From the NCBI GenBank assembly GCA_951813395.1, contig OX638356.1, forward strand, positions 1,715,340-1,779,339: DNA of 64,000 bases, written 5' to 3'. The notes under the pieces are model-generated. The model did no database searches and was not told the origin of the DNA. It saw only the letters and a list, made by a program, of their open reading frames with translations. This DNA comes from Longimicrobiales bacterium. Its GTDB lineage: Bacteria; Gemmatimonadota; Gemmatimonadetes; Longimicrobiales; Gaopeijiaceae. This document shows, piece by piece, positions 19,520 to 51,250 of this stretch (position 1 is its first letter; every line of letters begins with the position of its first letter). The position numbers were made by a program, and so were the translations under genes.

Positions 19520-19550
19520 CCCATTGGGATCACGAGAAAGGAGAAGCGCC

Positions 19551-25497: not shown

Positions 25498-25569
25498 TCC
25501 GGCGATCCCCGCGGGCAGGCGGCCGTGGCGTCAGCCGCGTGCGCGGCACTCCGGGAGGAGGGTATACCC

Positions 25570-26547
25570 GTGTGCAGATTGATGCTTGTCCCAATGGCGG
25601 GTGCTTTGCTCGTCGGTGGCGTCGTGGATTCGGCGCTGGCCCAGGAGCGCCGGCCGCGCACCGAGGCTGAGGCCCGGGCGGCCGCCGAGCGCAACCGGGC
25701 GGAACGGGCCAGGCTGGAGGCCGAGACCGGTCGGCCGGTCGCGTTGCTCCATGACTACGTGGAGGCCACGGTGGGTCCGGTGCCCGAAGAGCTGGGGGTC
25801 GATCCGTTCTACCAGAAGTACGTGGACGCGGACGGCATTCCGGTGCTCTCGTCGACCAAGGTCCCCGATATCGCGCTGCTGGTCGTGCGCGACATCATCA
25901 ACGCGATGCTGGTGGCGCGGCCGGACCTGCGCGCGTCGATGATCGAGCGGAACTGGCGCACGGGCGTGATTGCCGAGGTCGAAATGACGATGGATATCCC
26001 CGAATACGGAATGCGCAAACGGCCGGGTGCTCCCGAGGACGAGCCCATCATGCAGGCGGACCGGGACTATCATGCCAACCGGTCGCGGGGACTGGGCGGC
26101 AACCCCACCACCGGGGCCGAGGAGAACATCCTGGGCTATCCCGACACGCGCTACTTCGGCGAACACATCTTCGTCCACGAGTTCGCCCATGCCATCCACA
26201 GGGCGATCCGGGACGTCGACCCGGGAATGGCACAGGAGATCGTTGCCGCGTACGACGCGGCCATGGCTGCGGGCAAATACGAGCACGCCGACGGGCGCAG
26301 GCACTACGCCACCACGAATCCGAACGAGTACTGGGCCGAAGGCGTCCAGTGGTGGTTCTTCTCCAACTACGGAGAGTGTTTCGCCGGGGATGTGACGGTG
26401 GAGTCGCCGGATGAATTCGTAGCCTACGACCCTGTGCTCGGCGAGCTGCTCGGGCGCGTCTTCAACACGCACCGCATCCCCATGGACATCTTCCACGGGA
26501 AGCGGATCCGGCCGGTATCGTGCGCGGAGCAGCCAACCGCTCGCTAA
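25570..26547 (+). CDS. Secreted HExxH zinc metallopeptidase-like protein
   Basis: A 325-residue protein with a Sec signal peptide (cleavage near SALAQ), an Arg/Glu/Ala-rich coiled segment (about 27-55), and a catalytic half with HEFAHAIH at 203-210 (zinc His 203 and 207, Glu 204). NEYWAEGVQWWF at 252-263 could supply the third ligand (Glu 253 or 257). The pattern HEFxHxxH...NExxAExxQ is that of gluzincins related to the anthrax lethal-factor-like group, often found as orphan secreted proteins in planctomycetes and relatives. GTG 25570 is chosen because GGGAGGAGG lies 8 bases upstream. An in-frame ATG at 25525 lacks a site. Substrate unknown. It is convergent with the operon ending at 26551. 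Confidence 0.75.
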   Translation: MCRLMLVPMAGALLVGGVVDSALAQERRPRTEAEARAAAERNRAERARLEAETGRPVALLHDYVEATVGPVPEELGVDPFYQKYVDADGIPVLSSTKVPDIALLVVRDIINAMLVARPDLRASMIERNWRTGVIAEVEMTMDIPEYGMRKRPGAPEDEPIMQADRDYHANRSRGLGGNPTTGAEENILGYPDTRYFGEHIFVHEFAHAIHRAIRDVDPGMAQEIVAAYDAAMAAGKYEHADGRRHYATTNPNEYWAEGVQWWFFSNYGECFAGDVTVESPDEFVAYDPVLGELLGRVFNTHRIPMDIFHGKRIRPVSCAEQPTAR

Positions 26548-26550
26548 CAG

Positions 26551-27252
26551 CTACGATGGACCGGGCTCGACCAGGGTGGCGCCGATGATGCGGTCGAGGA
26601 GGGGGAAGTTACGGTCCAGGTACTCGTTGCCGCCTTCCACGATGGGACCCTGGCGGCCCTGCCTGACGCCGCTGCCGGACTCCTCGCCGTAACCCGAATA
26701 GAGACTGTCCAGCACTTCCATCCCCTCGACAACCCGCCCGAAGATCGCGAAGGGCTCGACGTCGTTGCGCGTGTTGTCGCCCAGGTTGATGTAGATCTGG
26801 GTGTTGCGGGTGTTCGGCTCGGGCGACATTGCGAAGGCCAGCGTTCCGCGAACGTTGCTGCCGTGGGCCGGGTCGTCGGGGATCTGCAGGTGCAGCCAGG
26901 CAGCGTTCACCCGGGGATCGCCGTGCAGCCCGAACTGGACGATGTACCCTTCGCTGACGCGGTGGAATCTCGTATCGTCGTAGTATCCCAGGCGCACGAG
27001 GTTGTAGAACCGGTCGGCGCCGAGAGGGGCCTGGTCCCGGACCAGTTCCAACACGAAGGCACCCTTGTTCGTCTCGAAGCGGGCGCGCCAGACGGATGGC
27101 GAGGGGCGGGTCCACTCCGGGTTGGACGGGTCAAGGAGCAGGCTGGCGTGGTCGCTCGTTCCGTTCCCTGAGCAGCCGGCCGCGGTCGCGAGCAGCAGGA
27201 GCTTCGCGCCGACGCGGCGGCCACGGAGCATGCGGCGCGACAAGGCTCTCAT
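26551..27252 (-). CDS. Cyclophilin-type peptidyl-prolyl isomerase lipoprotein
   Basis: The 233-residue product has a lipobox ATAAGC at about residue 27, then a cyclophilin fold: FETNKGAFVLELVRDQAPLGADRFYNLVRLGYYDDTRFHRV, IVQFGLHGDP, RGTLAFAMS, NTRNTQIYINLGDN and FAIFGRVVEGMEVLDSL. It should catalyse Xaa-Pro isomerisation in the periplasm, helping fold exported proteins. Its start overlaps the stop of the DUF5695-like gene by 4 bases, making it the last gene of the long arabinose-linked operon. This is an unusual place for an isomerase and hints at a dedicated folding role for the large exported proteins upstream. Confidence 0.9.
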   Translation of the reverse strand: MRALSRRMLRGRRVGAKLLLLATAAGCSGNGTSDHASLLLDPSNPEWTRPSPSVWRARFETNKGAFVLELVRDQAPLGADRFYNLVRLGYYDDTRFHRVSEGYIVQFGLHGDPRVNAAWLHLQIPDDPAHGSNVRGTLAFAMSPEPNTRNTQIYINLGDNTRNDVEPFAIFGRVVEGMEVLDSLYSGYGEESGSGVRQGRQGPIVEGGNEYLDRNFPLLDRIIGATLVEPGPS

Positions 27253-30227
27253 GGCGCGCCCGGGGCTGCGCCCGCCCTCCGTACGGTTACCACTCCCGAG
27301 CCCGCGGTCCCGTCCACGGAAACGTCGAAGTTGGCTGCGGCCCCTTCTGCCACTTCGAACGAGGCGGTGGCATCCGCTCCACGCGACCCGTCCCCGCGCA
27401 ACACCCGGTAGGTTCCCGAGGGCAGCCCGGCCACGCGCACCGCGTTGACGTGCGCCGCCGGGTTCCGGCTTTCGAGTTCGAAGCTGAGTTCTCCGAGGTC
27501 CTCACTGAACGCTATGGGCCGGCCCGCCGCGAAACGGTCGACCTCGGTCTCGACGTGGAGGCGCCCGCCCGCCAACAGCGCGTGGAAGCGCCGCCGCACG
27601 CCGTCCCGCGGCACGACCTCGATTCGGCCCGCCCGCCCGGCCGCCTCCCGCCAGGTGCCGCCGAAGCAGAACCGTCCGAAGACCGGGTCGTCCGCGATCA
27701 CGGTGCGCGCGCAGCGGAGGCCGCCGCAAAAGCCCAGGTCGATTTCGCACGAGTAGTACCACGATCCGCGCGAGTGCGGCTGGTCGAGCCAGGTCTCCCC
27801 GTACGGAGCGGGTTCGAAACCGCCGCCCGCGCCGCCGTCGTTTTCCGGGCCCGGATACCAGTGGCCGTAGCCGGATTCCGGGGTGCCGGTGTTCATCAGC
27901 GCCCAGGCGCTCAGGAAGGACGCATAGCCAAGCCGAAGGTAGGGCCACGGGTCCTCTGCATGGTGAAGCGCGTAGTCGAGCACGCTCCAGCCCCCCATCT
28001 GCGACATGTAGGTGAGCGTGTAGGAGTTCCCGCCGGAGCCCCTTATGTCGGAGCCGAGCAGGTAGTATGCGTTCTCCAGCCAGCCGCGGCAGAATACGTT
28101 CGCGGCCATCTGGATCTCCATGAACTCCCGCGCGGCCTCCAGCGGAATGCGCGTCGAAGGCGGATAGTCGACCCATCCCACGCGCACTTCGCGGGGCTCT
28201 TCCGGGCCTCCGGCGTCGGCCATCGCCAGGGCGTGTTTCGCCAGTGCGTGCGTCTCCTCGAAGCCCGTGGTGTCGAACGGGTACTCCGAGCGGAAGAGGT
28301 CGGGCCGGCCGGTCACGAAGGTTCGTACCTTGCGTTCCCAGTGCGGGAGCAGGCGCTCGGCCTCGTTGCGCATCCCTTCGGCGAAGAGCGCACCGACGAC
28401 GTCCTGGACGACCAGCCCGTTCATCAGCCCGGTCTCGTACGCCGACCAGCGCTCGATCTCCCACGGAATGGTGAAAAGGGCGAGGGCGGTGCCGTAGGCG
28501 CGCATCAAGTATTGATGCGCGGTCATCGCCGTGCGGATGTGGGGGTGATTCCTCGCGACCCGGTACATGCTCAGGTACATGAGGGTGACATGGGGGTAGT
28601 CGTAGATCCGCCACAGGTGCTGCCGGCCCGCCCGCCCGGGATCGTCGCTCTCGCGGTTCGTTTTCCAGTCGGGGATCCCGTAGATCCCGTAGGAGAATGT
28701 CTCCTCGGTCGTCCGCTGAAGCCCGCCCCATACGAAGTTCTCGATGTAGTAGTCGAGGGCCTCGACCTCTTGCTGCACCGGGTATTCCGCGTTCTTGGAG
28801 GCGAGAAAGGCCGGCTTGCTGAGCCCGGGATCGTCGCAGGTCACCTCGTAGATCCGCCACCCGACGATCCGGTCGTAGTTGTCGGGCCCGAGCATCACGT
28901 GCGTGTCCATGGCCCACTCGGCCAGGAGCCCGTCGTACCAGAGGGCCGGGTCGCGGTGCTGATGGGTGGCGATGAAGGCGGCGCGCTTGGCGATGAGCGT
29001 CTCCAACGGCTCCGTGGCGAAGAACTCGAGGTGCATGTGGCGGTCGTCGCCGAATCGGACCGTGAGACGGTTCTCGCCGAGCCGCGAGAGGGCGACTTCG
29101 TAGATGACCGAATCGCCGTCCCGGCCCACGCGGCGGAGGCGTGTTGCCGCGGGATGTTCCGCGTCCACCCCGCGAATCTCTTCTTGCGAACGCAGCGCGA
29201 TGCGGGCTTGGAGGTCCGTCGGCACGGTCATGCCGGGTACCACCTGCACGTCCACCAGGCCGTGCTCGAAGAGAATCTCCCGAGCGTGGTCGTAGTCGTC
29301 CGCCCAGCGCATGGTGAAGGCGTAGGACCGCTCTTCACCGGGCCCCAGCACGAGATTGGTGTTGGGTTGCCGCCAGTGGCAGCCTCGTTCCACCGCGACC
29401 GCGCCTGCCGCCGCGGAATGGATGAAGACCCGGTATCCGCTCTGCGCTTCCCAGTATTCGAGCGCGGTGTGCCCGTCGGGAGTGAGCATGAGGTAGGGTC
29501 CTACGCTGTTGCCGCGTGTCCATACCAGGTACGAGCCGTGGCCCGCGACGAGGCTGTGCTTGAGCACGGGCGGCGACGGGTTCTCCTCCCCTCTGCGAGG
29601 GCGGTTGGGGTTGATGGGCAGAGGGATCGCGAGGTCTCCGATTTCGATGGCGCGACCGGTCGGGTTGCGGGCGGTGATCGTCCACAGGATCGAATCCTCT
29701 GCGACCGTGAAGCGGACGTCGACTTGCGGCGCCCCCGATCCGGGCGGGCCGGTCACCGTGACCCGCTGGTCCTGGCCGTCGGCGCTGGCCCGAGCGACAC
29801 GGCGGACCTCGGCGTCGTCGGTCCGGACATCGCGCCAGGCTTCGTCCCCCCGCCGGAAGCGCACGATGACGTCGCCCAGGCGGGTCTCCGGCGTCACGTA
29901 CTCGGTGGCGACCGTGTCGTCGGCGCAGCGCAGGCTGGTAATCGTCCCGTCCTCAAAGGTCACGACGAACCGGGAGGCCCGAGCGCGTCGGGGCGCGGCG
30001 GCGCGTGGTGAGCGCGTGCCTGCACTCCCCGGGACTTCCATGGTCGTGCCCAGGGTTGCGAGGCCGGCCGCCTGGAGGAACTGGCGGCGGCTGGGGCCGG
30101 CGGTGTCACCCCCGGAGGACCCGCGGCGGCCTGGGCGGGCGGGGTCATTCCCGGACGACTCGCGGCGGCCTGGGCGGGCGGGGTCTGCGCGACTCATGGG
30201 GGCGGCTCCCAGGCTCCTCGCGGTCAT
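27249..30227 (-). CDS. Large Tat-exported DUF5695-like protein, copy A
   Basis: A 992-residue protein with a Tat motif SRRQFLQAAGLATLG around residues 46-60. In front of it lies a 13-residue repeat region (RRxSSGxDPARPG). The mature protein starts with beta-sandwich-like sequence and continues as a probable (alpha/alpha)6 toroid: FVWGGLQRTTEETFSYGIYG, YDYPHVTLMYLSMYRVARN, YPFDTTGFEETHALAKHAL, RLGYASFLSAWALMNTG. It is paralogous to the gene at 33115-35964. I place both near DUF5695 from memory, with moderate confidence. A carbohydrate-active role (hydrolase or lyase) is inferred from the fold and operon. ATG 30227 overlaps the upstream gene by 4 bases; ATG 30197 is an alternative with a nearby GGGAG and would shorten the repeat region. 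Confidence 0.65.
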   Translation of the reverse strand: MTARSLGAAPMSRADPARPGRRESSGNDPARPGRRGSSGGDTAGPSRRQFLQAAGLATLGTTMEVPGSAGTRSPRAAAPRRARASRFVVTFEDGTITSLRCADDTVATEYVTPETRLGDVIVRFRRGDEAWRDVRTDDAEVRRVARASADGQDQRVTVTGPPGSGAPQVDVRFTVAEDSILWTITARNPTGRAIEIGDLAIPLPINPNRPRRGEENPSPPVLKHSLVAGHGSYLVWTRGNSVGPYLMLTPDGHTALEYWEAQSGYRVFIHSAAAGAVAVERGCHWRQPNTNLVLGPGEERSYAFTMRWADDYDHAREILFEHGLVDVQVVPGMTVPTDLQARIALRSQEEIRGVDAEHPAATRLRRVGRDGDSVIYEVALSRLGENRLTVRFGDDRHMHLEFFATEPLETLIAKRAAFIATHQHRDPALWYDGLLAEWAMDTHVMLGPDNYDRIVGWRIYEVTCDDPGLSKPAFLASKNAEYPVQQEVEALDYYIENFVWGGLQRTTEETFSYGIYGIPDWKTNRESDDPGRAGRQHLWRIYDYPHVTLMYLSMYRVARNHPHIRTAMTAHQYLMRAYGTALALFTIPWEIERWSAYETGLMNGLVVQDVVGALFAEGMRNEAERLLPHWERKVRTFVTGRPDLFRSEYPFDTTGFEETHALAKHALAMADAGGPEEPREVRVGWVDYPPSTRIPLEAAREFMEIQMAANVFCRGWLENAYYLLGSDIRGSGGNSYTLTYMSQMGGWSVLDYALHHAEDPWPYLRLGYASFLSAWALMNTGTPESGYGHWYPGPENDGGAGGGFEPAPYGETWLDQPHSRGSWYYSCEIDLGFCGGLRCARTVIADDPVFGRFCFGGTWREAAGRAGRIEVVPRDGVRRRFHALLAGGRLHVETEVDRFAAGRPIAFSEDLGELSFELESRNPAAHVNAVRVAGLPSGTYRVLRGDGSRGADATASFEVAEGAAANFDVSVDGTAGSGVVTVRRAGAAPGAP
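30091..30195 (-). repeat. 39-bp tandem repeat in the N-terminal coding region
   Basis: About 2.7 copies of a 39-base unit (30091-30129, 30130-30168, 30169-30195) that begins CCTGGGCGGGCGGGGTC on the plus strand. The second and third units are nearly identical over their shared length. The unit keeps frame and encodes 13 residues (about ARPGRRxSSGxDx) just before the Tat motif of the DUF5695-like protein. Copy number could vary between strains without breaking the frame. Confidence 0.8.
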
Positions 30228-33118
30228 CCGTCGATGCCCAGGAACGCGCGCGCTTCCGACAGGTAGCGGCCCGGTGCTCCGGCCGCCTCCAGTCGCCGGT
30301 ACTCGTGACGGGCGTCCGCCAGGCGACCCGCTTGTGCATGCAGCCTCACCAACGCCACGCCTGACCGGAAGTTGAACCGGAAACGCGCCAACGCGAGTTC
30401 GTGATGCTCGACCGCGCCGTCCAGGTCGCCGTCGCGTTCGGCGAGCATGCCGGCGCGGGTGTGCACCCGGGACGCCGTGGGCTCGCCAAAGGCGCCGACC
30501 GGCGCGAAACCGCCATCCCGAAAGACGAACTCGACCGGACCCGGCTCCCGGACCATCTTCAACGCCCGCTCGAGGAGCGCCCGCGATTCGTCGTCGTCCA
30601 CGCCATCGAGCACCTCGCTGAGCTGCACGATGGCGCTCAGCGGGGAACCGTCAAGGTCGAGCACCTGTTCGAGCAGGCGCCGCGCGGCCGCCGCGTTCCC
30701 GTCGTGCGCCGCGAACTCCGATCGGACCTCAAGAACGCGCGGATCGTCCGGATCCAACAACTGCGCCGTAGCGAGGTCTTCGTGTCCCTCGTCGGGCCTT
30801 CCGGTTCGCAGTTCTGCCAGCGCCAACTCGGCCCAGGCCGATGGATCCCGGCGATTGATGTTCTCGAGACTGTGCCTGAGCGCCTGCTCGGCTCCCTCGT
30901 AGTCCTCCCTGAGCATTCTCCCGCTTGCCCTCAGGATCCAGGGGTTCGCGATGCCGCCATACGGATTGGGCGACTCCTCGATGCTCAGCGCCGAGTCCAG
31001 GGCCAGTTCCATGCTGTCGAGCCTGCCGGCCGCATGGTAGACATCGGCCAGCCTCAACCGGGGCTCCGCGGAATCCGGACGACGGTGTGCCGCAGTGCGG
31101 AGAACTTCAATGGCGCGCTGGTGGTCGCGCGTCTGCAGAACCACGTCCTCGGCGAGTCCCGCGTAACCGGCGATGGCCTCGGGGAAGGCTTCGATGGACA
31201 TGCGGTGCAGACTCCGTGCCTCGGCGTAGTTGCCCCGGAGCAGATGGACGCGTGCGAGCAGGGACAGGAGGTCGGGATGGTCACCGTAGCGTCTCAGCGC
31301 CTCCCGCGCCGTCGTGGCCGCCCCGGTCAGGTCGCCCTCCCGGACCAGCGTGTTTCCCTTCTGCCGGTACGCGCGAATCTCGACATCCCGGTAATTGTCC
31401 CCCTCGTTGACCCGTTCGAGGAACTCGAAGAGCGCGGGATCCCTGGTGCGCAGTTGGTCCCGGGTGTGCTTCGAGGTCCCCCGCTGGTCCGTGAACTTGA
31501 CCTCGGAGATGAAGGCCTCGGCGGCCTGGGCGAGGTACTCCATCTCGTTGAAGTCGGCGTAGTAGTCCAGCGTGCGCCGCTCCGCCCTGGCGGTCTGGAA
31601 CAGGCGCGCAACCTCGACACGCTGGTCGTCGGGGAACATGCCGTGCACCTGATGCGTGAATTCGTGCGTGACGACATTCCAGCGCTGATAGCGCACGTCC
31701 CGGACCCATTCCTCGCCGCCGACGGCGTGAAAGCCCCCTTGCCCCTTGACGTCGTCCCACAGCCGCAGGTCGAAGGTGCGCGTCCCCCTGGTGCGCTCCT
31801 TGTGGGGGGACTGCCAGAGCAGCTTGTGGAACGGCAAAAGGTGGAAGGTGGCACCGCCGACCGCGAGGGCGGGCAGGTAGTTGCTGAAGGGCTCCACGGA
31901 CAGGCGCACGATCTTCCGGAGTTGATCGTCGAGACGCTCATAGTCCGGGAAAACGTCCCGCAAACCGGGCGGCTCCGGCGCATCGCGCTGCTCGAAGACC
32001 GCGCGCATCTCGTCCAGCCCCACGATCACGCGGTCCCGCATCCGACGAAGGGCATAGCTGATCCCGTAGTGGGCGAGACCGTATCCGGGATGATCGGCCA
32101 GGATTCGCTCGAACCACCCCAGCGCGGTTTCGAACTCTCCCAGATGATAGTGCGCCGTGCCGATGCCCATGAGGGCCACCGTGTTCGCGGGGTCGGTGGC
32201 CAGGACCTCGCGGAACGGGTCCATCGCCTCGCTGTACCGTCGAGCCAGCAGGTGCTGGTCTCCGAGGGTCAGGAGCTCGCCGATACGGCCGTCGAACTCG
32301 CCGGGATCCGCCGGTACCGAGTCGTAGCCGAAGAGCGATCCTCCGTTGCCGAGGTAGGAGTGAGCTCCCTGTGAGAAGGGATCGAGGTCGATGGCCCGTT
32401 GGGCGTGTCGGTACGCGCTCTCGAGTTCTCCGTCGCTCCTGAGGACGGAGGCCAGCGCGGCGTGGGCGGCGGCGGACAGGGAATCGGCGGCGACGGCCCG
32501 AAGCACCGACGCTCTCCACTCTGCGTTGGCCTGTGCCTCGCGATCGATGCGGGCGGCCAGCAGGTGGGCGGGGGCGAGGGATGGATCGAGGTCGAGCGCC
32601 TGTTGGAGGAGGGCACGTGCATCCGTGTGGCTGTCGGTCCAGAAGGCAACTTCGGCAAGGCCCAGTAACGCATCCGCCGAGTTCGGGTCCCGCTCGAGCA
32701 GCTGGCCGAAGATCGTGCTCGCGGCGACCAGGTCCACCCTGTCGAGGGCCAGCCGACCCTCGAGCAGGACGACCCCCTCACTTTCCGGTGCCAGTTCGGC
32801 GGCGTATGCCAGCGACCGGGCCGCGTCTCCGAAACGGTACTGGCGGCGACGGAGGTGAGCCTGCGCAAGCAGGGCGTCCGGTCGGTCCGGATCTTCGCTG
32901 AGCAGCTGCCCCAGAATCGAGTCGGCGTCTTCGTAGCGGCCCGCCTGCATTCGCAGCCCCGCCATTCGGCAGCGGAGTTCCCGCGACGTGGGCCGATCCT
33001 CGATCAGACGCTCGGTCTCGGCGGTCGCCGAATCCAGTTGCCCGACTGTCCTGACCGGCTGGACGCACCCGGAGTCCTGGACGCCGATCGAAAGAGTGAG
33101 TGCCGCGATGACGTTCAT
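30224..33118 (-). CDS. TPR protein with an embedded HExxH metallopeptidase domain
   Basis: A 964-residue protein. It has a short hydrophobic N-terminus (MNVIAALTLSIGVQDSGC), then TPR repeats over about 30-360, a gluzincin-like domain with HEFTHQVH at 485-492 and NEMEYLAQAAEAF at 524-536, and a second set of TPR repeats to the end. The zinc ligands would be H485 and H489 with Glu 525 or 534. A larger upstream frame exists, but the ATG at 33118 overlaps the stop of the preceding gene by 4 bases and removes an 80-residue nonconserved leader. It lies between two DUF5695-like paralogues with 4-base overlaps on both sides, so co-translation is likely. Substrate unknown; processing or assembly of the flanking proteins is conceivable. 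Confidence 0.75.
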   Translation of the reverse strand: MNVIAALTLSIGVQDSGCVQPVRTVGQLDSATAETERLIEDRPTSRELRCRMAGLRMQAGRYEDADSILGQLLSEDPDRPDALLAQAHLRRRQYRFGDAARSLAYAAELAPESEGVVLLEGRLALDRVDLVAASTIFGQLLERDPNSADALLGLAEVAFWTDSHTDARALLQQALDLDPSLAPAHLLAARIDREAQANAEWRASVLRAVAADSLSAAAHAALASVLRSDGELESAYRHAQRAIDLDPFSQGAHSYLGNGGSLFGYDSVPADPGEFDGRIGELLTLGDQHLLARRYSEAMDPFREVLATDPANTVALMGIGTAHYHLGEFETALGWFERILADHPGYGLAHYGISYALRRMRDRVIVGLDEMRAVFEQRDAPEPPGLRDVFPDYERLDDQLRKIVRLSVEPFSNYLPALAVGGATFHLLPFHKLLWQSPHKERTRGTRTFDLRLWDDVKGQGGFHAVGGEEWVRDVRYQRWNVVTHEFTHQVHGMFPDDQRVEVARLFQTARAERRTLDYYADFNEMEYLAQAAEAFISEVKFTDQRGTSKHTRDQLRTRDPALFEFLERVNEGDNYRDVEIRAYRQKGNTLVREGDLTGAATTAREALRRYGDHPDLLSLLARVHLLRGNYAEARSLHRMSIEAFPEAIAGYAGLAEDVVLQTRDHQRAIEVLRTAAHRRPDSAEPRLRLADVYHAAGRLDSMELALDSALSIEESPNPYGGIANPWILRASGRMLREDYEGAEQALRHSLENINRRDPSAWAELALAELRTGRPDEGHEDLATAQLLDPDDPRVLEVRSEFAAHDGNAAAARRLLEQVLDLDGSPLSAIVQLSEVLDGVDDDESRALLERALKMVREPGPVEFVFRDGGFAPVGAFGEPTASRVHTRAGMLAERDGDLDGAVEHHELALARFRFNFRSGVALVRLHAQAGRLADARHEYRRLEAAGAPGRYLSEARAFLGIDG

Positions 33119-35964
33119 CGTCGGCCATCCAGCACGACTACGGTCGGTCCTCCGCCCAGGGGCACCACGTAGGCGCCCCGCTCCATCGGAAACGACTCGG
33201 CTGGCGCGATCGGGCCCACTCCTTCGATGGCAGCAGGCTGCTCGACACGCAACCGCGCGCTGCGCACGGTCGCCGTGGCTGGCGAGAGCGTCACCCGGAC
33301 CACCGCTCCGGACAGCTCGACGGCCTCGAAGGCGCCCGCGTCGAGCGTGAGCCAAAGACCGAGCGGCGCCAGGTACACCCGTGAACGGGCGGCGTCGAGA
33401 GGGACCACGCGGACCATGCCCGCCGCGTCGTCCGACGCGCTCTCCGTGTCGCGCGAAGCCACGCTCAGGTTGCCTCCGAACGCCAGCCAGCCGAAAACCG
33501 GATCGTTGACGACATACGTGCCCGTGCCCACCGCGTGCCCGAAGAACCCGGGCCCATAGTCGCCGGAGTAGCCGTCAATCCGGAGCGTCGCAGGGTAGGC
33601 ATGGAATGCGCTGGGACCGAAGCCGTCGCGCGTCACGTTCGCAATGCCTCCCATCATTCCTGCGTACCCGACGCGCAGCAGGTAGAGGTCTTCAGGGTGG
33701 TCCCGGTATTCGGAGAGGACGGGGATCGCGTTCAGCGCCGAGCCGTAGTGGTGGAGCTGGCGCTCGATCCCGCGAAGCTTGCCCGCGTACATGAAGTCCC
33801 AGTACCTGCGGGCGCTCCCGTTGTAGCCCCAATGCGGAACGGTGGGCATATAGGCGAGGATGGCGTTCAGCGTCACGAGCGCCTTCTCGTCGAAACCGAA
33901 GTACCTGCACCACGCATACACTTCCTCCTGTCCGGTCGAGTCCCACGGCATCTCGCTGCCGAACGGATAGCCGAGCGAGCGCCACACTTCCGCCCGTGCG
34001 CGCATCGTCTCCTCGAGCGCCCCGGCCGCCTCCAGCCAGCCCTCCCGCTGCAGGTCGAGCAGGATGAGGAGGAAAACGGTCCCGTCCATCTGGCCGAACT
34101 GGGCGTAGCGCGGGGCGTGCTCGGCCATGGCCAGCCCGGTCCGCCAGGCGCGGTCGAGATACCAGTCCCAGGGGTGATTGGTGACCAGACCCTCCTGGTT
34201 GCGGGCCAGGCGGTACAGGACCCAGTGCAGCGCGGCGACGTGGGGATAGTTGTAGGAGCGGACGACGGTCATCGCGTGCTCGCGATCCCAGCTCGACCAG
34301 CCGCCGTAGCGAACGTCGTCGCTGTAGGTGCCCTCGGGCATGTCATCCGGCTCATAGTAGAACAGACTCTTGCGGACGCCGTAGGCAAGTTCGCCCTCGT
34401 CGTACTGCAGTCCGCCCCACAACACCTCGTCCACGAAACGCTGCATCTTCACGAGTTCGGCCGGGTCGGGCTGGACGAGCTGCTTCATGATCGCGGCCAG
34501 CCAGGAGCCCGATCCGCCCTCGTCCCCCAGACCGGCGATCCAGGCCCGGTTGTCCTCGGTGACGTGGCTGCGCTCGTCGTAGTCGTAGCTGATGACCGAT
34601 GGACTTCGTCCAAACGGATCGTCGCGCTCCTCGAACCACTGCTCGGTGGTGAGAAACCGGCCCAGGTCGGCCACGACGTCACCGGCCGGCTTGACGACCT
34701 TGTAGTGGATGGTCTGCTCCAGACCGTCTTCGTACGCGATGGTCATGCGCGCGCGGCCCCACGACCGCCCGCGCACGTCGTAGGCGAGCCAGCCGGATGC
34801 GGCGGGGTCGGCGGCGGTCGTGAGCGCTGCCGGGTTCCCGGAGCGCGTGATCGTGAGCGCGCCCGGAGGGTCCACCTCGAGCGACCGCACTCCGGCGGCA
34901 TGCTTGAGAAAGAGCCGACCATCGTTGTCCATCGGCAACACGTAGCCGGGCAACCCCACAGCGACCGGCCGGCGGTTCGCAAGCAGGGTGGACTCAATCT
35001 CGCGGATCTCGTCGGCCACGAGAAACCCGACGCCGTACGAGCGGGTTTCTCCGGGTGCCAGGGTGGCGGAGGTCGGCGGATTCCACGGGTCGGCTCCGCT
35101 CCAATCTTCCTCGGCGTAGGCGCGGCTGTGCGCCATCCACTCGTAGAAGCCCTCGAAAGTGACGCCGCGTGGGGTCGGGTCGCCGAGCAGCGGATTGTAC
35201 GCCTCGAAGGGGGTGTCGCCGAGAGGCACGACGAGCAGCGCGGGCCCTTGTCCGCTAAGGCGTGTGACCTGCAGATATCCGGCGTCCCGTCCGATGTAGG
35301 GGTCGTGGAACGAGGACACCGCGTGTGCTTCGTCCAGCGACCGGTCCGACAGGATGTTGTTGAAGACCATCGGGATGCCAAGAGCCCCGATCTCCACGGG
35401 AACCTCGCCCGGGTTGTGCAACTCGAAGCGGAGCGTCAGGTGGCCATCGCGGGACTCCCAGTAGCGGTGAACGCGCAGGGGGAGGTCGGTGGGGAGGGTG
35501 GGGGCGAGGTCGGAGGCGGCGAGGACCGGTTCCCGGGCGGGAAGGGGCTCGACGGGGCGACGGGCCTCGGCGGTCGAGTAGTGCCTCCAGGCGTCCGAAG
35601 CCTCCCGGCGCAGACGCAGCGTCAGGTCGCCGAGATGGAAGTGCTCGTCACCCGCGCGGCGCTCCAGCCAGTCGGACGGGGTGAAGTCGAACCCGCCGTG
35701 TCCTTCGGGCTGCAGCGCGGCCACGGTCTGTGAGGCGCGCACGAGTGCGAGGCGCAGCGGGCCCGCCTGAAGCTCGTGCACTCCCTGATCGAGGCCGAGG
35801 GTGGGGATTGGGTCGCGGGCGCCGCGTTCCTGAGTGCAGGCGAATTGCAGTGTCGCGGTCGCGGCCATCGCGAGCAGCCGGACGCCGGTCGGCCGGCCAC
35901 GTGGCCGCAACAGCCCTGCAAGCGGGCCGGATCGTCGATCGAGAGCCGCGCCAATCTCTGCCAT
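33115..35964 (-). CDS. Large exported DUF5695-like protein, copy B
   Basis: A 949-residue paralogue of the protein at 27249-30227. Its signal region MAATATLQFAC, about 30 residues in, suggests a lipoprotein. Shared landmarks are VLWGGLQYDEGELAYGVRK, YNYPHVAALHWVLYRLARN, MPWDSTGQEEVYAWCR (the TGxEE pair is present in both copies), and RVGYAGMMGGIANVTRDGFGPSAFHAYP. The C-terminal 150 residues form beta-rich repeats. Probable (alpha/alpha)6 carbohydrate-active enzyme, inferred only. The ATG at 35964 has a GGAG 8 bases upstream, so the start is well supported. A 144-base gap containing a phosphatase stump separates it from araD. Confidence 0.65.
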   Translation of the reverse strand: MAEIGAALDRRSGPLAGLLRPRGRPTGVRLLAMAATATLQFACTQERGARDPIPTLGLDQGVHELQAGPLRLALVRASQTVAALQPEGHGGFDFTPSDWLERRAGDEHFHLGDLTLRLRREASDAWRHYSTAEARRPVEPLPAREPVLAASDLAPTLPTDLPLRVHRYWESRDGHLTLRFELHNPGEVPVEIGALGIPMVFNNILSDRSLDEAHAVSSFHDPYIGRDAGYLQVTRLSGQGPALLVVPLGDTPFEAYNPLLGDPTPRGVTFEGFYEWMAHSRAYAEEDWSGADPWNPPTSATLAPGETRSYGVGFLVADEIREIESTLLANRRPVAVGLPGYVLPMDNDGRLFLKHAAGVRSLEVDPPGALTITRSGNPAALTTAADPAASGWLAYDVRGRSWGRARMTIAYEDGLEQTIHYKVVKPAGDVVADLGRFLTTEQWFEERDDPFGRSPSVISYDYDERSHVTEDNRAWIAGLGDEGGSGSWLAAIMKQLVQPDPAELVKMQRFVDEVLWGGLQYDEGELAYGVRKSLFYYEPDDMPEGTYSDDVRYGGWSSWDREHAMTVVRSYNYPHVAALHWVLYRLARNQEGLVTNHPWDWYLDRAWRTGLAMAEHAPRYAQFGQMDGTVFLLILLDLQREGWLEAAGALEETMRARAEVWRSLGYPFGSEMPWDSTGQEEVYAWCRYFGFDEKALVTLNAILAYMPTVPHWGYNGSARRYWDFMYAGKLRGIERQLHHYGSALNAIPVLSEYRDHPEDLYLLRVGYAGMMGGIANVTRDGFGPSAFHAYPATLRIDGYSGDYGPGFFGHAVGTGTYVVNDPVFGWLAFGGNLSVASRDTESASDDAAGMVRVVPLDAARSRVYLAPLGLWLTLDAGAFEAVELSGAVVRVTLSPATATVRSARLRVEQPAAIEGVGPIAPAESFPMERGAYVVPLGGGPTVVVLDGRR

Positions 35965-36017: not shown

Positions 36018-36119
36018 CCACCAGCGCGCGCGGTGCTGCTCGCCGGTGTCGGCGAGGGTCCCGTCCAGGTCCCGGAGCACGGCCCGGGGCAGCGCCTCGT
36101 GGGCGATCTCAATCCTGGC
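36018..36119 (-). pseudogene. Stump of a HAD-family phosphatase (beta-phosphoglucomutase-like)
   Basis: In the gap after araD, a minus-strand frame reads EIAHEALPRAVLRDLDGTLA followed by DTGEQHRARWW. This is the N-terminus of a HAD phosphatase: motif I DxDGT is intact (DLDGTLADT) and the EQH-x-x-W context is that of beta-phosphoglucomutase-like proteins. Similarity stops after about 34 codons, where the start of the DUF5695-like gene follows. No other HAD motifs are visible downstream. It overlaps the end of araD by a few codons. Most likely a deletion relic of a former operon member. Recognised by eye. Confidence 0.55.
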
Positions 36120-36813
36120 CGTAATACGCGTTGCTGCCGTGCTTGCGTAGAAAGTGCCGGTCGACGAGGTGATGAGCGGGGCGGGGCGCGTCGGGCGCAA
36201 TCGCGCGGATCGTGCACTCCATGCGGGCGAGCACTTCCAGCATCTCGGAACGCGCCACGGCCTCGTGTCCGTCCGCGCCCCAGGTGAACGGTCCGTGGTT
36301 CGCGACCAGGACGGCCGCCACTTCTTCGGGCGAGATGCCGGCGTCCGCGAACGCCTCGACGATGACAAGCCCCGTGTTGCGCTCGTACTCGCCCGCGACC
36401 TCCTCCCGGGTCAGCTCCCTCGTCACCGGGACGTCGCCCCGGAAGTAGTCGGCGTGGGTCGTGCCCATGCAGCGCACGGGTAGGCTCGCCTGCGCGAGCG
36501 CGGTCGCGAACTCCGAGTGCGTGTGGGCCACGCCGCCACAAGGAAAGGCCCGATACAGCTCGAAGTGCGTAGGGGTGTCAGACGAGGGGCGCAAGTCGCC
36601 CTCGACCACGTCTCCGGTCTCAAGCGAGACGATCGCCATGTGGTCCGGGGTCAGCTTGGCGTAGGGGACTCCGCTGGGCTTGATCGCGAAGAGGCCGGCC
36701 TCGCGATCTGCCCCGGACACGTTGCCGAAGGTGCCGGTGACAAGGCCGCGCGCGGCGAGTTCGAGGTTCGCCGCCCAGACGGACTCCTTCAATGCGCCTG
36801 TCCGCCGGCTCAT
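36109..36813 (-). CDS. araD: L-ribulose-5-phosphate 4-epimerase
   Basis: Converts L-ribulose 5-phosphate to D-xylulose 5-phosphate, the last step of L-arabinose catabolism. The 234-residue class II aldolase-fold protein has the zinc ligands HTH at 97-99 and HG at 173, NVSGADREAGLFAIKPSGVPY near the N-terminus, SSDTPTHFELYRAFP, and the AraD C-terminal signature KHGSNAYYGQ. That signature separates it from fuculose aldolases. The start overlaps the araB stop by 4 bases. Cytoplasmic. Confidence 0.96.
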   Translation of the reverse strand: MSRRTGALKESVWAANLELAARGLVTGTFGNVSGADREAGLFAIKPSGVPYAKLTPDHMAIVSLETGDVVEGDLRPSSDTPTHFELYRAFPCGGVAHTHSEFATALAQASLPVRCMGTTHADYFRGDVPVTRELTREEVAGEYERNTGLVIVEAFADAGISPEEVAAVLVANHGPFTWGADGHEAVARSEMLEVLARMECTIRAIAPDAPRPAHHLVDRHFLRKHGSNAYYGQD

Positions 36814-38531
36814 GCCGCGCCCGCCCCCGCGCCCGCCCCCGTGCCGGTCGCCGCGACGCGCTCGCGCAAAGCCATCAGCCGCTTCATGAGCGACGGGAAG
36901 TCGGCCTGGGCGCCCCGCACCCCGCCGAAAGAGTCGTGCAGTTCGCGGTACATGGAGTACAGGCCATCGTAGATGGCGCGTGCCCGGGGCTCCGGGTCGA
37001 AGCGCTCGTCGCGCACCGACGTCATCCGCGCCTGAGCGTTTTCAAAGTTCGCGTACCCCCCGTTGTCGGGACCTGCCGCAACGGCCGCGGAGATCGCCGC
37101 ACCAAGCGCCGGGGTCTGCCGCGAACCTGCCAGGAGCATCGGCCGCCCCAGGACGTCCGCGTAGATCTGCATGAAGAGATCGTTCTTCGCCGCGATCCCG
37201 CCGCAACACACGATCCGGTGGATCGGAATGCCGCAATCCACGAGCCGCTCAACGATCACGCGCGCGCCAAAGGCGGTCGACTCGATGAGCGCGCGGTACA
37301 CCTCTGCCCGGGTGGTTCCCAGCGTCTGTCCAAGGATGAGGCCCGTCAGGCGCGGGTCGACCAGCACCGTGCGATTGCCGTTGTTCCAGTCGAGGGCGAG
37401 GAGCCCGGACTCGCCCGGGTGGAGCCTCGCTGCCTCGTCGGACAGCGTGCCGTGCAGTGCGTCGTCCCCGTCGCAGACGGAATCGATCCACCAGTGCAGC
37501 AGGTCGCCGACGGCGGACTGGCCGGCCTCGATCCCGTAGTAGCCGGTCATCACGGAACCGTCCACGATCCCGCATATCCCCGGCACATCGGCGAGCGCCT
37601 CCGTCGCCGGCGCGACGGTGATGTCGCAGGTCGACGTCCCGATGATCTTGACCAGGGTGCCGGGCGCTACCCCTGCTCCCACCGCTCCGTAGTGGGCGTC
37701 GAATCCCCCCATGGCGATCGGGATCCCGGCAGGGAGACCGAGTTCTTCGGCCCACCTGGACGAAAGCCTGCCAGCGGGCAGGTGGGGAGGATGCGCTTCC
37801 TCGTAGAGGTGGCCCCGCAACTCGGCCAGCCGCGGATCGAGCCGCGCGAGGAATCCCGTGGAAGGCAGGCCGCCCCAGGCCCGCGAGTACATCGCCTTGT
37901 GCCCCGCGGCGCACACGCAACGCAAAACGTTGCGCGGGTCGGAAACGCCGGAGAGAACGGCCGGTACGAAGTCGGCGAGTTCCACCCAGCTGTTGGCCTC
38001 CGCGAAGACATCCGGCGCCACGTTCAGGCAGCGCCAGACCTTGGACCAGAACCACTCGGAGGAGTACGTGCCTCCGATGGGCGCCAGATACTCGGGCGCG
38101 TGCTCCCTGGCGACTGCAGTGATGGCGGCCGCCTCCTCGGCCGCGGTGTGGTCCTTCCATAGCCAGGCGTGGGCGGCGGGGTTGGCGCGCCACTTCGGGT
38201 CAAGGGCGAGCGGGCGGCACGCGGCGTCGACCGGGATCGGCGTGGAGCCTGTGGTGTCCACGCCGATGCCTGTGACCCGGTCGCGCGAGAAGCCGCCGGT
38301 TTCGTCGGCGTCGGCCAGCGCGCCCAGCGTGGCCACCCGAAGGCCCTGGACGTAGTCGGCCGGGTTCTGCCGGGCCAGGTGAGGGTCCGCGGCGTCCACG
38401 ATGACGCCGCGTTCCCCCGACGGGTAATCGAAGACATGCGTCCCGACGGTGCCGCCGTCTGCGCAGGAGACGACTACGGCCCGTACCGAGTTCGTGCCGT
38501 AGTCAAGGCCGAGTGTGTGCGCTGGCTTCAT
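36810..38531 (-). CDS. araB: Ribulokinase
   Basis: Phosphorylates L-ribulose with ATP. The 573-residue FGGY-family protein begins with the LGLDYGTNSVRAVVV phosphate-binding loop. It has VTGIGVDTTGSTPIPVD, ANPAAHAWLWKDHTAAEEA, WFWSKVWRCL, GGFDAHYGAVGAGV, DWNNGNRTVLVDPRLTGLI and CCGGIAAKNDLFMQIYADVLGRPM, all as in AraB and not xylulokinase. The C-terminus ends in a low-complexity GTGAGAGAGAA tail coded by a GC-rich repeat. It sits between the symporter (19-base gap) and araD (4-base overlap). Confidence 0.96.
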   Translation of the reverse strand: MKPAHTLGLDYGTNSVRAVVVSCADGGTVGTHVFDYPSGERGVIVDAADPHLARQNPADYVQGLRVATLGALADADETGGFSRDRVTGIGVDTTGSTPIPVDAACRPLALDPKWRANPAAHAWLWKDHTAAEEAAAITAVAREHAPEYLAPIGGTYSSEWFWSKVWRCLNVAPDVFAEANSWVELADFVPAVLSGVSDPRNVLRCVCAAGHKAMYSRAWGGLPSTGFLARLDPRLAELRGHLYEEAHPPHLPAGRLSSRWAEELGLPAGIPIAMGGFDAHYGAVGAGVAPGTLVKIIGTSTCDITVAPATEALADVPGICGIVDGSVMTGYYGIEAGQSAVGDLLHWWIDSVCDGDDALHGTLSDEAARLHPGESGLLALDWNNGNRTVLVDPRLTGLILGQTLGTTRAEVYRALIESTAFGARVIVERLVDCGIPIHRIVCCGGIAAKNDLFMQIYADVLGRPMLLAGSRQTPALGAAISAAVAAGPDNGGYANFENAQARMTSVRDERFDPEPRARAIYDGLYSMYRELHDSFGGVRGAQADFPSLMKRLMALRERVAATGTGAGAGAGAA

Positions 38532-38550: not shown

Positions 38551-40314
38551 TCAGCCGCGGAAGTAGAGGTAGGCCAGCAGGATCATCACCAGAACCATTG
38601 CGGATCCGATCACGTCACCGCGGCCCCAGCTCCGGCGCGATTCGGCACGGTGCTCGTCCGTCACCGTGGCGTACGTCAGCCCCGAGATCCGCCCATATGA
38701 CGGCGCCTCCGTCAGATAGCTCACCACGACCATCACCACCACCGAGACCGTGAAGATGAAGAGGCTGTAGTACTGGAAGTAGATGTTGTTGACGATCCAC
38801 AGGAACGACCCGGGATCGTAGCCCGCCTCGAAGCCCGCCATCCCCATGGAGACCGGGGTGTCGACGGCCAGGCGGAATGCCCCCAGCACGAAGCCGACAA
38901 CGAGCGCGGCCAGGCATCCCTTCGCATTCAGCCGCTTCATGAAGACGCCGAGGAAGAAGACCGTGAAGATGGGAGGCGCCAGATACCCCTGCACGCCCTG
39001 GAGGTACTGGTAGAGGCCCCGCGAACCCTGGATCACCGGGATCCAGAGCAGCCCGATGACCACCATTGTCGTGGTGGCCACCCGTCCCACCCACACCAGC
39101 CGTTGCTTCGACGCCTCCGGCCGCCACTTCTGATACAGGTCCATTGTGAACAGCGTGGACGACGCGTTGAACACGCCCGCGAGCGAGCTCATCAGCGCGG
39201 CGAGCAGTCCCGCCACCACCAGCCCCCGCACCCCGACCGGCAGGATGCTCGTCACGAGCAGCGGGAACGCGGCCTGCGCGGCTCCCGGGATCACGTTTCC
39301 GTCCGCGTCGACCATCTGGTTGAGCGCGCCGTACTCGCCGGTGCGGGCGAGCGCCAGCGCGATCATCCCCGGGATGATGAAGATGAAGACGGGCAGCAAC
39401 TTGAGCATCCCCGCGAAGATGCTCCCGCGGCGGGCCTCGGTCTCGTTCCGCGCGCCCAGCGCCCGCTGCACGATGTACTGGTCGGTGCACCAATACCACA
39501 GCCCGATGATCGGAGCGCAAAGGAGCATCCCCGGCCACGGGAAGTTGCCGTTGAAGTACCACGCGATCCGGTTCGGCTCCACCACCGGTGCCCACGTCCC
39601 CTCCATCCCCTCGGGGATGATCGGCTTCCACAGGTTGAACATGTCCGGATCGAGCGCCTCCCTCAGTCCCCCCCAGCCCCCGAGTGCCGCCAGCCCGAAC
39701 CAGGTGAGCAGCCCCGATCCCAGCACCAGCACCAGCGTCTGCAACGCCTCGGTGTAGGCGACCGCGCGCATCCCGCCGGCGACCGTATACACACCGGTCA
39801 GCACGATCACGACCAGCGAGCCCACCCAGAAGCTGTTCAGCACCCACGGCCCGAGCTGCAGGTGCACGTCCGGCAGGAGCGTCGCGAAGACCACACCGCC
39901 CGCGAAGATCCCCACCGCGATCTTGGTCAGCACGTAGCTCACCAGCGAGATCAGCGAGAGCACCCAGCGCGCGGCCGGCGAGAAGCGCCGCTCCAGGAAC
40001 TCGGGCATGGTGTAGACGCGCGAGCGCATGAAGAAGGGGACGAACACCCAGGCCAGGATGAGGAGGCACCACGCGTGCAGCTCGTAGTGCGCCAGCGCCA
40101 CCCCGTCCGTCGCCCCCGATCCGGCCAGACCCACGAGATGCTCTGAACCGATGTTCGACGCGAAAATCGACGCCCCGACGATGAACCAGCCGAGGTTGCG
40201 GTTGGCCAGGAAATAGTCGTCCGGCGTGTCCTTGCGCCTGCGGAAGACCCACGCGGCGAGCCCGCCCACCACCCCGAGGTAGGCGATGATGATCAGCCAG
40301 TCGAGGGTCGCCAT
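38551..40314 (-). CDS. Sodium/sugar symporter, SGLT type (SSS family)
   Basis: An inner-membrane protein of 587 residues with about 14 helices of the LeuT fold. The N-terminal ASNIGSEHLVGLAGSGATDG, AHYELHAWCLL, and the middle LLCAPIIGLWYWCTDQYIVQRALGA closely follow the sodium/galactose symporter vSGLT, including the region that forms the sugar site. VFNASSTLFTMDLYQKW is the usual Na2-site segment. With araA, araB and araD on either side, L-arabinose is the likely cargo, though related pentoses or galactose cannot be excluded. It is the only sugar importer of the inner membrane seen in the window. Confidence 0.92.
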   Translation of the reverse strand: MATLDWLIIIAYLGVVGGLAAWVFRRRKDTPDDYFLANRNLGWFIVGASIFASNIGSEHLVGLAGSGATDGVALAHYELHAWCLLILAWVFVPFFMRSRVYTMPEFLERRFSPAARWVLSLISLVSYVLTKIAVGIFAGGVVFATLLPDVHLQLGPWVLNSFWVGSLVVIVLTGVYTVAGGMRAVAYTEALQTLVLVLGSGLLTWFGLAALGGWGGLREALDPDMFNLWKPIIPEGMEGTWAPVVEPNRIAWYFNGNFPWPGMLLCAPIIGLWYWCTDQYIVQRALGARNETEARRGSIFAGMLKLLPVFIFIIPGMIALALARTGEYGALNQMVDADGNVIPGAAQAAFPLLVTSILPVGVRGLVVAGLLAALMSSLAGVFNASSTLFTMDLYQKWRPEASKQRLVWVGRVATTTMVVIGLLWIPVIQGSRGLYQYLQGVQGYLAPPIFTVFFLGVFMKRLNAKGCLAALVVGFVLGAFRLAVDTPVSMGMAGFEAGYDPGSFLWIVNNIYFQYYSLFIFTVSVVVMVVVSYLTEAPSYGRISGLTYATVTDEHRAESRRSWGRGDVIGSAMVLVMILLAYLYFRG

Positions 40315-45513: not shown

Positions 45514-45698
45514 CGGGACCTCCACGTTGGACTCCGTTTTCCGGATGGGTACACGTTACTCGGGCCGTGGGCTTCCCGACAGACCATGCGAGGGGCCGTG
45601 CCGGTCGGAACCTGTCGCCTGGACGCCGCCGCTGATATTTCTGATGATCCCGGGTCGCTTCCGATTCCGGAAGGGGCCACCGATGGACGGATGACCCA
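45514..45698. promoter_or_regulatory. Divergent promoter region between arabinose operon and sulfatases
   Basis: This 185-base gap lies between the divergently read GH127-type gene and the first sulfatase, so it should hold both promoters. It contains slightly AT-richer segments near 45535-45560 and 45635-45650 (GATATTTCTGATGAT). I see no clear -35/-10 pairs and no inverted repeat that stands out as an AraR or AraC site. Confidence 0.45.
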
Positions 45699-51239: not shown

Positions 51240-51250
51240 GTTTACTTTAC
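51214..51250. promoter_or_regulatory. AT-rich 37-bp inverted repeat, likely operator
   Basis: Perfect 13-base arms GTAAAGTAAACAT (51214-51226) and ATGTTTACTTTAC (51238-51250) around an 11-base loop. Nested inside is a second palindrome, ACATTA-CA-TAATGT (51223-51236). The block is almost pure A/T in a GC-rich genome and lies between the divergent cytochrome and amidohydrolase genes, covering the cytochrome start codon. It looks like a binding site for a dimeric or double-dimeric repressor. Confidence 0.75.

What the first reader, a model, noticed from the sequence alone, without database searches (positions are those of the whole stretch)
26551..35964. Four-gene coupled module: two DUF5695-like giants around a TPR-metallopeptidase, plus a cyclophilin lipoprotein
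Copy B (949 aa), a TPR protein with HEFTHQVH, copy A (992 aa, Tat signal) and a periplasmic isomerase overlap each other by 4 bases in turn, so they are probably translated together in fixed ratio. The two large proteins are diverged paralogues sharing WGGLQ, YPHV and TGxEE landmarks on a probable (alpha/alpha)6 fold. A protease and a foldase locked between and after them suggest a dedicated maturation or assembly system for an unrecognised carbohydrate-active enzyme pair. This is my best candidate for an undescribed system.
Basis: partly seen in the sequence, partly recalled or inferred. Interest (0 to 1): 0.72.

Follow-up and report, generated by a model that had tools for sequence, protein, structure and literature searches.

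The report
Glycoprotein-eating gene module, sugar-plus-peptide enzymes
Next to arabinose-digesting genes, this bacterium carries two little-known relatives of a known sugar-chain lyase, one coupled to a metal-dependent protease and one to a proline isomerase; related gene sets in several bacterial phyla suggest they help dismantle arabinose-coated, hydroxyproline-rich (plant- or algal-type) glycoproteins.

Summary
In detail: four minus-strand genes (26551-35964) overlap by 4 bp each (ATGA) and continue an arabinose utilisation cluster (araA, araB, araD, transporter, galM, three GH127). Both large proteins belong to DUF5695 (PF18951). Their predicted structures match one solved protein far above all others: polysaccharide lyase PL27 BACCELL_00875 (Foldseek E 7e-28 and 6e-24; Z 27 and 26). 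Copies A and B are ancient paralogous families found across phyla, not a recent duplication. DUF5695 was found at 400 places in species genomes and is strongly linked to GH127 beta-L-arabinofuranosidases, prolyl/DUF885 peptidases and the 4-hydroxyproline catabolic pathway. Sister species fuse copy B to the TPR-metallopeptidase or copy A to the cyclophilin, and six insert a hydroxyproline-epimerase-like gene between peptidase and copy A. A Verrucomicrobiota gene run contains all four components. I therefore reject 'maturation system' and propose a utilisation module for arabinosylated hydroxyproline-rich glycoproteins, in which each glycan-acting enzyme is paired with a peptide-acting partner. 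Fold and gene linkages are shown; substrate and chemistry (hydrolase or lyase) are inferred. Absence of GH88/105 near DUF5695 argues mildly against a PL27-like uronate product.

The parts
33115..35964 (-). Copy B, 949 aa, full-length DUF5695 (PF18951), PL27-like fold; invariant R569/Y573/H575, S670-E671, D675, T677, E680, E681, R719, R720, H738, H739, Y740
30224..33118 (-). 964-aa TPR protein with a central gluzincin-type metallopeptidase domain (about 360-575; H485-E486-x-x-H489, candidate third ligand E527)
   Evidence: fused in frame to copy B in L027
27249..30227 (-). Copy A, 992 aa, diverged DUF5695 family with Tat-type leader (SRRQFLQAAG), PL27-like fold
26551..27252 (-). Cyclophilin-type peptidyl-prolyl isomerase, 233 aa, lipoprotein-type leader; fused to the C-terminus of copy A in two sister MAGs
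25525..26547 (+). Convergent neighbour, 340 aa, HEFAHAIH...NEYWAEG: second metallopeptidase of the same family as the domain in the TPR protein; homologues lie near DUF5695 in Bacteroidota and Verrucomicrobiota
36109..36813 (-). AraD, L-ribulose-5-phosphate 4-epimerase, directly upstream (about 145-bp gap, no promoter- or terminator-like site found in it)
36810..38531 (-). AraB ribulokinase
38551..40314 (-). Sodium:solute symporter
40319..41512 (-). Aldose 1-epimerase (galM-like)
41538..43028 (-). AraA L-arabinose isomerase
43015..45525 (-). GH127 beta-L-arabinofuranosidase family protein; its homologue abuts copy B in more distant Gemmatimonadota (L057, L058)
54840..57197 (-). GH127 family protein
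57208..59793 (-). GH127 family protein
16226..21041 (+). SusC-like TonB receptor (16226-19519) and SusD-like lipoprotein (within 19341-21041), likely the uptake pair; kept near the locus in sister genomes
   Evidence: L036, L037

Best explanation
The four genes are the glycoprotein-dismantling part of an arabinose utilisation locus. Copies A and B are two ancient families of exported enzymes built on the PL27 scaffold (galactose-mutarotase-like beta-sandwich plus (alpha/alpha) barrel) that trim or cut the glycan of an arabinosylated, hydroxyproline-rich glycoprotein (plant/algal extensin- or AGP-type, or a similar glycoprotein met by a marine or sponge symbiont). The TPR-metallopeptidase, working with copy B (fused to it in one relative), cuts the peptide backbone. 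The lipoprotein cyclophilin, working with copy A (fused to it in two relatives), isomerises prolyl/hydroxyprolyl bonds in the rigid peptide so that peptidases can proceed. GH127 enzymes then release L-arabinose, which AraA/B/D consume; hydroxyproline is consumed by epimerase/dehydratase pathways where these are present. Shown: fold, homology, gene linkage, fusions. Inferred: substrate, direction of coupling, isomerase action on substrate rather than on the enzymes, and the chemistry. I favour glycoside hydrolysis (about 0.55) over beta-elimination (about 0.3) or a non-catalytic role (about 0.15).
For: Arabinose operon immediately upstream and three GH127 genes in the window. Both models match PL27 BACCELL_00875 best by a wide margin, and the copy-A profile hits it by sequence (E 1.1e-11). 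In 80 DUF5695 loci within 10 kb: GH127 in 38, S9 prolyl-oligopeptidase family in 21, proline-racemase family in 18, amino-acid permease in 14, DUF885 in 13; 13 loci hold at least 3 of the 4 enzymes of the 4-hydroxyproline pathway, and one representative is a 4-hydroxyproline epimerase above NCBIfam's cut-off (598 vs 376 bits). In an evenly drawn set of 345 Bacteroidota, 10 of 14 DUF5695 genomes have a full proline-racemase-family gene vs 76 of 331 others (Fisher p 2e-4), 7 of them within 20 kb of DUF5695 (0.09 expected). In 20 DUF5695 genomes, GH127 lies within 25 kb in 12 (17 genes vs 0.74 expected). Sister genomes place a proline-racemase-family enzyme with the Ser/Cys pair between TPR and copy A (the pair is known from a 4-Hyp epimerase, eLife.03275). 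In-frame fusions copyB-TPRpeptidase (L027) and copyA-cyclophilin (L022, L023). G418 (Limisphaerales) runs copyB - metallopeptidase - GH127 - S9 - abhydrolase - cyclophilin - GH31 - S9 - DUF885 - POT peptide transporter - copyA on one strand.
Against: No biochemical data for any DUF5695 protein. In this genome the Hyp-epimerase-like gene is missing from the operon; the only proline-racemase-family gene is elsewhere and looks like a trans-3-Hyp dehydratase. Many DUF5695 loci show no Hyp genes within 10 kb. The TPR protein and the cyclophilin next to DUF5695 are nearly confined to this genus. Signals differ (Tat, Sec, lipoprotein, unclear for TPR), so co-location in one compartment is not proven. 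Catalytic residues could not be matched to PL27. Sponge or marine hosts need not offer plant extensin.
Confidence: 0.6

Rival explanations
1. One reading: the protease and the cyclophilin are a maturation or folding system for the two large enzymes.
For: 4-bp overlaps; fusions show physical linkage; cyclophilins are often periplasmic foldases (general knowledge).
Against: Most DUF5695 loci lack the TPR protein and a nearby cyclophilin. A maturation protease fused in frame to one client would be unusual. The same metallopeptidase family and the cyclophilin turn up among prolyl peptidases and a peptide transporter in another phylum.
Confidence: 0.15
2. Copies A and B are true PL27-type lyases that remove L-rhamnose caps from rhamnose-alpha-1,4-glucuronate ends of arabinogalactan proteins by beta-elimination.
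For: Best structural match by far is PL27; PL27 releases rhamnose from gum arabic (PMC8377490); copy B keeps an invariant R719/R720/H738/H739/Y740 set of the kind lyases use (the comparison with lyases is general knowledge).
Against: 15-18% identity over the structure; copy B has no sequence hit to PL27; the histidine of the YPH motif is W in PL27. No GH88/GH105 gene of at least 100 bits lies within 25 kb of DUF5695 in 20 genomes although these genomes carry 56; recurrent neighbours handle arabinose and hydroxyproline, not rhamnose or uronate.
Confidence: 0.2
3. The substrate is a peptide-free arabinose-rich polysaccharide (arabinan, pectin side chain, coral mucus polysaccharide); peptidase and isomerase genes are bystanders of the operon.
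For: araABD, GH127, GH51 and GH43 neighbours also fit arabinan; 62 of 80 loci lack a proline-racemase gene within 10 kb.
Against: Peptidases, peptide/amino-acid transporters and the Hyp pathway recur in the loci, the Hyp marker far above chance; peptide-acting domains are fused to DUF5695 proteins.
Confidence: 0.2

Closest known systems
Polysaccharide lyase family 27 (BACCELL_00875, PDB 5no8/5nok; L-rhamnose-alpha-1,4-D-glucuronate lyase)
   Same: Same two-domain fold over nearly the whole chain (632 of 669 residues, rmsd 3.3, Z 27.1 for copy B; Z 26.5 for copy A); copy-A profile finds it by sequence at E 1.1e-11.
   Different: Only 15-18% identity, an extra C-terminal beta region, different residue at the YPH site, no uronate-handling genes nearby, arabinose/Hyp context.
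Bifidobacterium longum Hyp-arabinooligosaccharide system (GH127, GH121 and a third enzyme with an ABC transporter; PMC7263609 abstract)
   Same: Targets beta-L-arabinooligosaccharides of hydroxyproline-rich glycoproteins; GH127 is shared.
   Different: No DUF5695, peptidase, cyclophilin or Hyp catabolism is mentioned in what was read; here peptide- and glycan-acting enzymes are coupled.
Svx metallopeptidase (PMC13164431)
   Same: A secreted metallopeptidase that cleaves arabinosylated extensin and needs its accessory domain to recognise the arabinan substituents.
   Different: Relation of the peptidase domains was not tested here; in this locus the partner is a PL27-fold protein rather than an acyltransferase-like domain.
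4-hydroxyproline catabolic clusters (eLife 03275)
   Same: Epimerase + D-Hyp oxidase + DHDPS-family deaminase + ketoglutarate-semialdehyde dehydrogenase families occur beside DUF5695 in many genomes.
   Different: Here they are attached to arabinosidases and peptidases; in this window's own locus the pathway is absent.

Membership tests
DUF5695 (PF18951) | Score above Pfam's gathering cut-off (25.2 bits) | tested here: met
   copy B 1254.9 bits, copy A 173.5 bits
PL27 | N-terminal beta-sandwich plus (alpha/alpha)6 barrel superposable on BACCELL_00875 | tested here: met
PL27 | Clear sequence relation to a characterised member: copy A | tested here: met
   profile A6 vs 5no8 E 1.1e-11, mainly the beta-sandwich
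PL27 | Clear sequence relation to a characterised member: copy B | tested here: not met
   profile A4 finds no PL27 chain
PL27 | Conserved catalytic residues of PL27 | tested here: inconclusive
   barrel-domain profile A7 gives no alignment to 5no8; the only aligned barrel segment has W where DUF5695 has the invariant H
PL27 | Beta-elimination at Rha-alpha-1,4-GlcA | not testable with these tools
   needs an enzyme assay; context has no strong GH88/105 within 25 kb in 20 genomes
Polysaccharide/glycan utilisation locus | SusC/SusD pair with CAZymes, transporter and sugar catabolism | tested here: met
   SusCD is on the other strand and about 5 kb from the four genes
Hydroxyproline-rich glycoprotein utilisation locus | Beta-L-arabinofuranosidase (GH127) | tested here: met
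   three in window; family-wide enrichment
Hydroxyproline-rich glycoprotein utilisation locus | Peptidases in the same locus | tested here: met
   HExxH proteins at 30224-33118 and 25525-26547; S9, DUF885, M1 elsewhere. Activity not tested.
Hydroxyproline-rich glycoprotein utilisation locus | Hydroxyproline catabolism in this window's locus | tested here: not met
   no proline-racemase family gene in the window; present in six sister genomes at the TPR/copy A junction and in 18 of 80 loci overall
Dedicated enzyme maturation system | Protease and foldase accompany the enzymes wherever these occur | tested here: not met
   TPR protein in 7 of 80 DUF5695 loci and cyclophilin homologues in few

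The most novel reading that the evidence does not exclude
DUF5695 and its copy-A sister family are two unrecognised CAZyme families of the PL27 clan that, with an undescribed metallopeptidase family and a prolyl isomerase, form a widespread pathway for complete use of arabinosylated hydroxyproline-rich glycoproteins, in which glycan-cutting and peptide-handling activities are physically joined (copyB-peptidase, copyA-isomerase); isomerase-assisted digestion of a polyproline-type glycoprotein would be a new principle.
Probability: 0.3. Interest if true: 0.82.

Novelty: new variant of a known kind. Interest (0 to 1): 0.62.

Why it matters
Extensins and arabinogalactan proteins resist microbial attack, and how bacteria degrade both their sugar and their polyproline backbone is poorly known; a search of the open literature for loci that join these activities found only one genome survey. 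The result gives a fold, a candidate substrate and testable partners to a domain of unknown function present in hundreds of species, predicts a new metallopeptidase family aimed at glycoproteins, and may help explain why GH127 is enriched in sponge symbionts (PMC8163846), for which those authors discussed hydroxyproline-linked arabinosaccharides.

Tried and rejected
Searching the literature for DUF5695 function: one incidental mention in fungal proteins. Searching the PDB with copy B by sequence: nothing useful. Mapping PL27 catalytic residues: the PL27 paper (PMC5555188) is not held, the barrel-domain profile gave no hit, and a search with the visible part of 5no8 found no PL27 in 395 Bacteroidota genomes, which proves nothing without a positive control. 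Finding copy-A homologues at random in 296 Bacteroidota: only the genome already known, so copy A is rarer than DUF5695. PDB search with either metallopeptidase: only chance hits; the family's only Pfam signal is a sub-threshold ATLF match, read as a distant relation among zinc peptidases and nothing more. Rejected: recent duplication of A and B, because A homologues in Acidobacteriota, Verrucomicrobiota and Bacteroidota are 37-46% identical to copy A whereas A and B share 25%. Rejected: strict conservation of the four-gene order outside the genus. Promoter/terminator scan of the araD-copy B gap: none found, uninformative for this phylum.
Full report
OBSERVATION. The four minus-strand genes exist as described. 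The three junctions are ATGA overlaps. The TPR gene begins at the ATG at 33118. Pfam gives DUF5695 for both giants (B 1254.9 bits over the full model, A 173.5 bits), TPR repeats for the middle protein and cyclophilin for the last. The genome (4.09 Mb, one contig) has only these two DUF5695 genes.

SETTING. The four genes follow araD, araB, a sodium symporter, galM and araA, and three GH127 beta-L-arabinofuranosidase-family genes lie further upstream. A SusC/SusD pair lies on the other strand at 16226-21041. So the module is the distal part of an L-arabinose utilisation cluster. The same cluster is kept in sister genomes, mostly with 70-96% protein identity. Record titles of relatives call them Gemmatimonadota MAGs; isolate labels such as RHO and SB suggest sponge samples, which is an inference.

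WHAT THE GIANTS ARE. The copy B model (41-sequence alignment, pLDDT 85, pTM 0.87) and the copy A model (15 sequences, pLDDT 71.6) both match PL27 BACCELL_00875 best in the PDB: Foldseek E 7.1e-28 and 5.6e-24 against about 1e-6 and 2e-5 for the next entry; VIA-align Z 27.1 (632 residues, rmsd 3.3) and 26.5 (583 residues, rmsd 3.5) against 16.8 and 16.1 for the next. Copy A's family also reaches PL27 by sequence, going from E 2.6e-4 (single protein) through 4.2e-7 to 1.1e-11 as the alignment deepens; copy B's does not. A and B are homologous to each other. Within each family the conserved motifs W-G-x-x-Q, R-x-Y-x-Y-P-H and S-E-x3-D-x-T-x-x-E sit mostly just before or at the starts of barrel helices, the expected cleft end; copy B adds R719, R720, H738, H739, Y740, for which the copy-A alignment shows no evident counterpart. 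The two families therefore probably share a scaffold and part of the site but differ in specificity. The duplication is old: copy-A homologues in Acidobacteriota, Verrucomicrobiota and Bacteroidota are 37-46% identical to it.

DISTRIBUTION AND NEIGHBOURS. A scan of 84,980 species genomes confirmed 400 stretches encoding a relative of copy B; the best 80 lie in Gemmatimonadota, Bacteroidota and Rhodothermia, Acidobacteriota, Verrucomicrobiota, Aminicenantes and Planctomycetes-type (Sedimentisphaerales) records. In the phylum of the window 19 of 395 genomes have DUF5695, in Bacteroidota 14 of 345. Clustering the genes within 10 kb of 80 loci gave, after DUF5695 itself: GH127, S9 prolyl-oligopeptidase family, proline-racemase family, FAD (DAO) oxidoreductase, amino-acid permease, DUF885, aldehyde dehydrogenase, GH51, DHDPS family, GH43. 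Proline-racemase family + DAO + DHDPS + aldehyde dehydrogenase is the 4-hydroxyproline pathway described in eLife.03275; a representative scores as 4-hydroxyproline epimerase far above the curated cut-off. Thirteen loci hold at least three of the four enzymes.

CONTROLS. In the evenly drawn Bacteroidota set, proline-racemase-family genes occur in 10 of 14 DUF5695 genomes and 76 of 331 others (p 2e-4), and in 7 of the 14 one lies within 20 kb of DUF5695 where 0.09 would be expected. In 20 DUF5695 genomes that I chose from the scan, GH127 genes lie within 25 kb in 12 (17 genes, 0.74 expected), proline-racemase family in 7, and GH88/GH105, which would process unsaturated uronate left by a PL27-like lyase, in none although these genomes carry 56 strong ones. 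The Poisson figures assume uniform placement and ignore relatedness among genomes.

COUPLING. In six sister genomes a 357-aa proline-racemase-family gene lies between TPR and copy A; it has the Ser/Cys pair (MSGTNT...DRSPCG), known from a 4-hydroxyproline epimerase, although the closest NCBIfam model by score is trans-3-hydroxyproline dehydratase, below its cut-off. The window species lacks it there; its own copy elsewhere has a Cys/Thr pair and resembles trans-3-hydroxyproline dehydratase. In L027 copy B runs in frame into the TPR-metallopeptidase (83% identity to copy B, then 71% to TPR residues 2-572, no stop). In L022 and L023 copy A runs in frame into the cyclophilin, which has lost its lipoprotein leader. 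In a Limisphaerales genome one strand carries copyB, a doubled metallopeptidase of the 25525-26547 family, GH127, S9, an alpha/beta hydrolase, cyclophilin (53% identical), GH31, S9, DUF885, a POT peptide transporter and copyA. The peptidase domain of the TPR protein is itself a distant member of the 25525-26547 family (reciprocal profile hits near 1e-8).

INTERPRETATION. Glycan-acting (A, B, GH127) and peptide-acting (metallopeptidases, prolyl peptidases, isomerase, peptide transporter, hydroxyproline catabolism) functions are tied together by gene clusters and fusions, and sugar catabolism is for arabinose. The simplest reading is use of arabinosylated hydroxyproline-rich glycoproteins. A metallopeptidase that needs recognition of extensin's arabinan to act is known (Svx, PMC13164431), and GH127 in sponge symbionts was already connected to hydroxyproline-linked arabinosaccharides (PMC8163846). 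The isomerase is more likely aimed at Pro/Hyp-rich substrate than at folding A and B, because it sits among prolyl peptidases in another phylum, but this step is inference. Whether A and B hydrolyse or eliminate is open; I lean to hydrolysis because nothing around them handles unsaturated uronate.

VERDICT. Real, coupled and biologically coherent; new variant of a known kind (glycan utilisation locus) built on two unassigned families of a known fold. Interest 0.62.

Noticed in passing
L027:3-4160 (+): Copy B fused in frame to the TPR-metallopeptidase in a sister MAG, with the C-terminal TPR array missing; L026 has an equally shortened peptidase with its own leader.
   Followed up: yes
L022:13946-18076 and L023:9889-13944 (+): Copy A fused to the cyclophilin (1376 and 1351 aa ORFs, the N-terminal start is overcalled) with loss of the lipoprotein leader.
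   Followed up: yes
window 25525-26547 (+): Metallopeptidase-like protein without a Pfam family; homologues near DUF5695 in Bacteroidota and Verrucomicrobiota, some with two tandem domains of which the second lacks HExxH (L115, L119); a second copy lies next to it in L021 and L024.
   Followed up: partly
window 45510-47084 (-): 524-aa protein with no Pfam hit next to a GH127 gene, conserved (roughly 54-65% identity) in sister genomes.
   Followed up: no
window 47210-48835 (+) and 53158-55215 (-): Two sulfatases inside the arabinose cluster, suggesting a sulfated substrate; not explained by plant extensin.
   Followed up: no
window 48837-51917 (-): 1026-aa protein with multihaem cytochrome c motifs, HEAT and TPR repeats inside the sugar cluster, conserved in sister genomes.
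   Followed up: no
window 22048-25461 (-): 1137-aa FG-GAP/ASPIC-UnbV protein; relatives also occur within 10 kb of DUF5695 in Acidobacteriota loci.
   Followed up: partly
G000:C1:1075713-1076681 (L169): Only proline-racemase family gene of this genome; Cys/Thr pair, closest to trans-3-hydroxyproline dehydratase.
   Followed up: partly
L165:5047-8580 (-), L129:20653-22679 (+): DUF6055 proteins (one with HExxH) recur beside copy A / DUF5695 and may be further glycoprotein peptidases.
   Followed up: no
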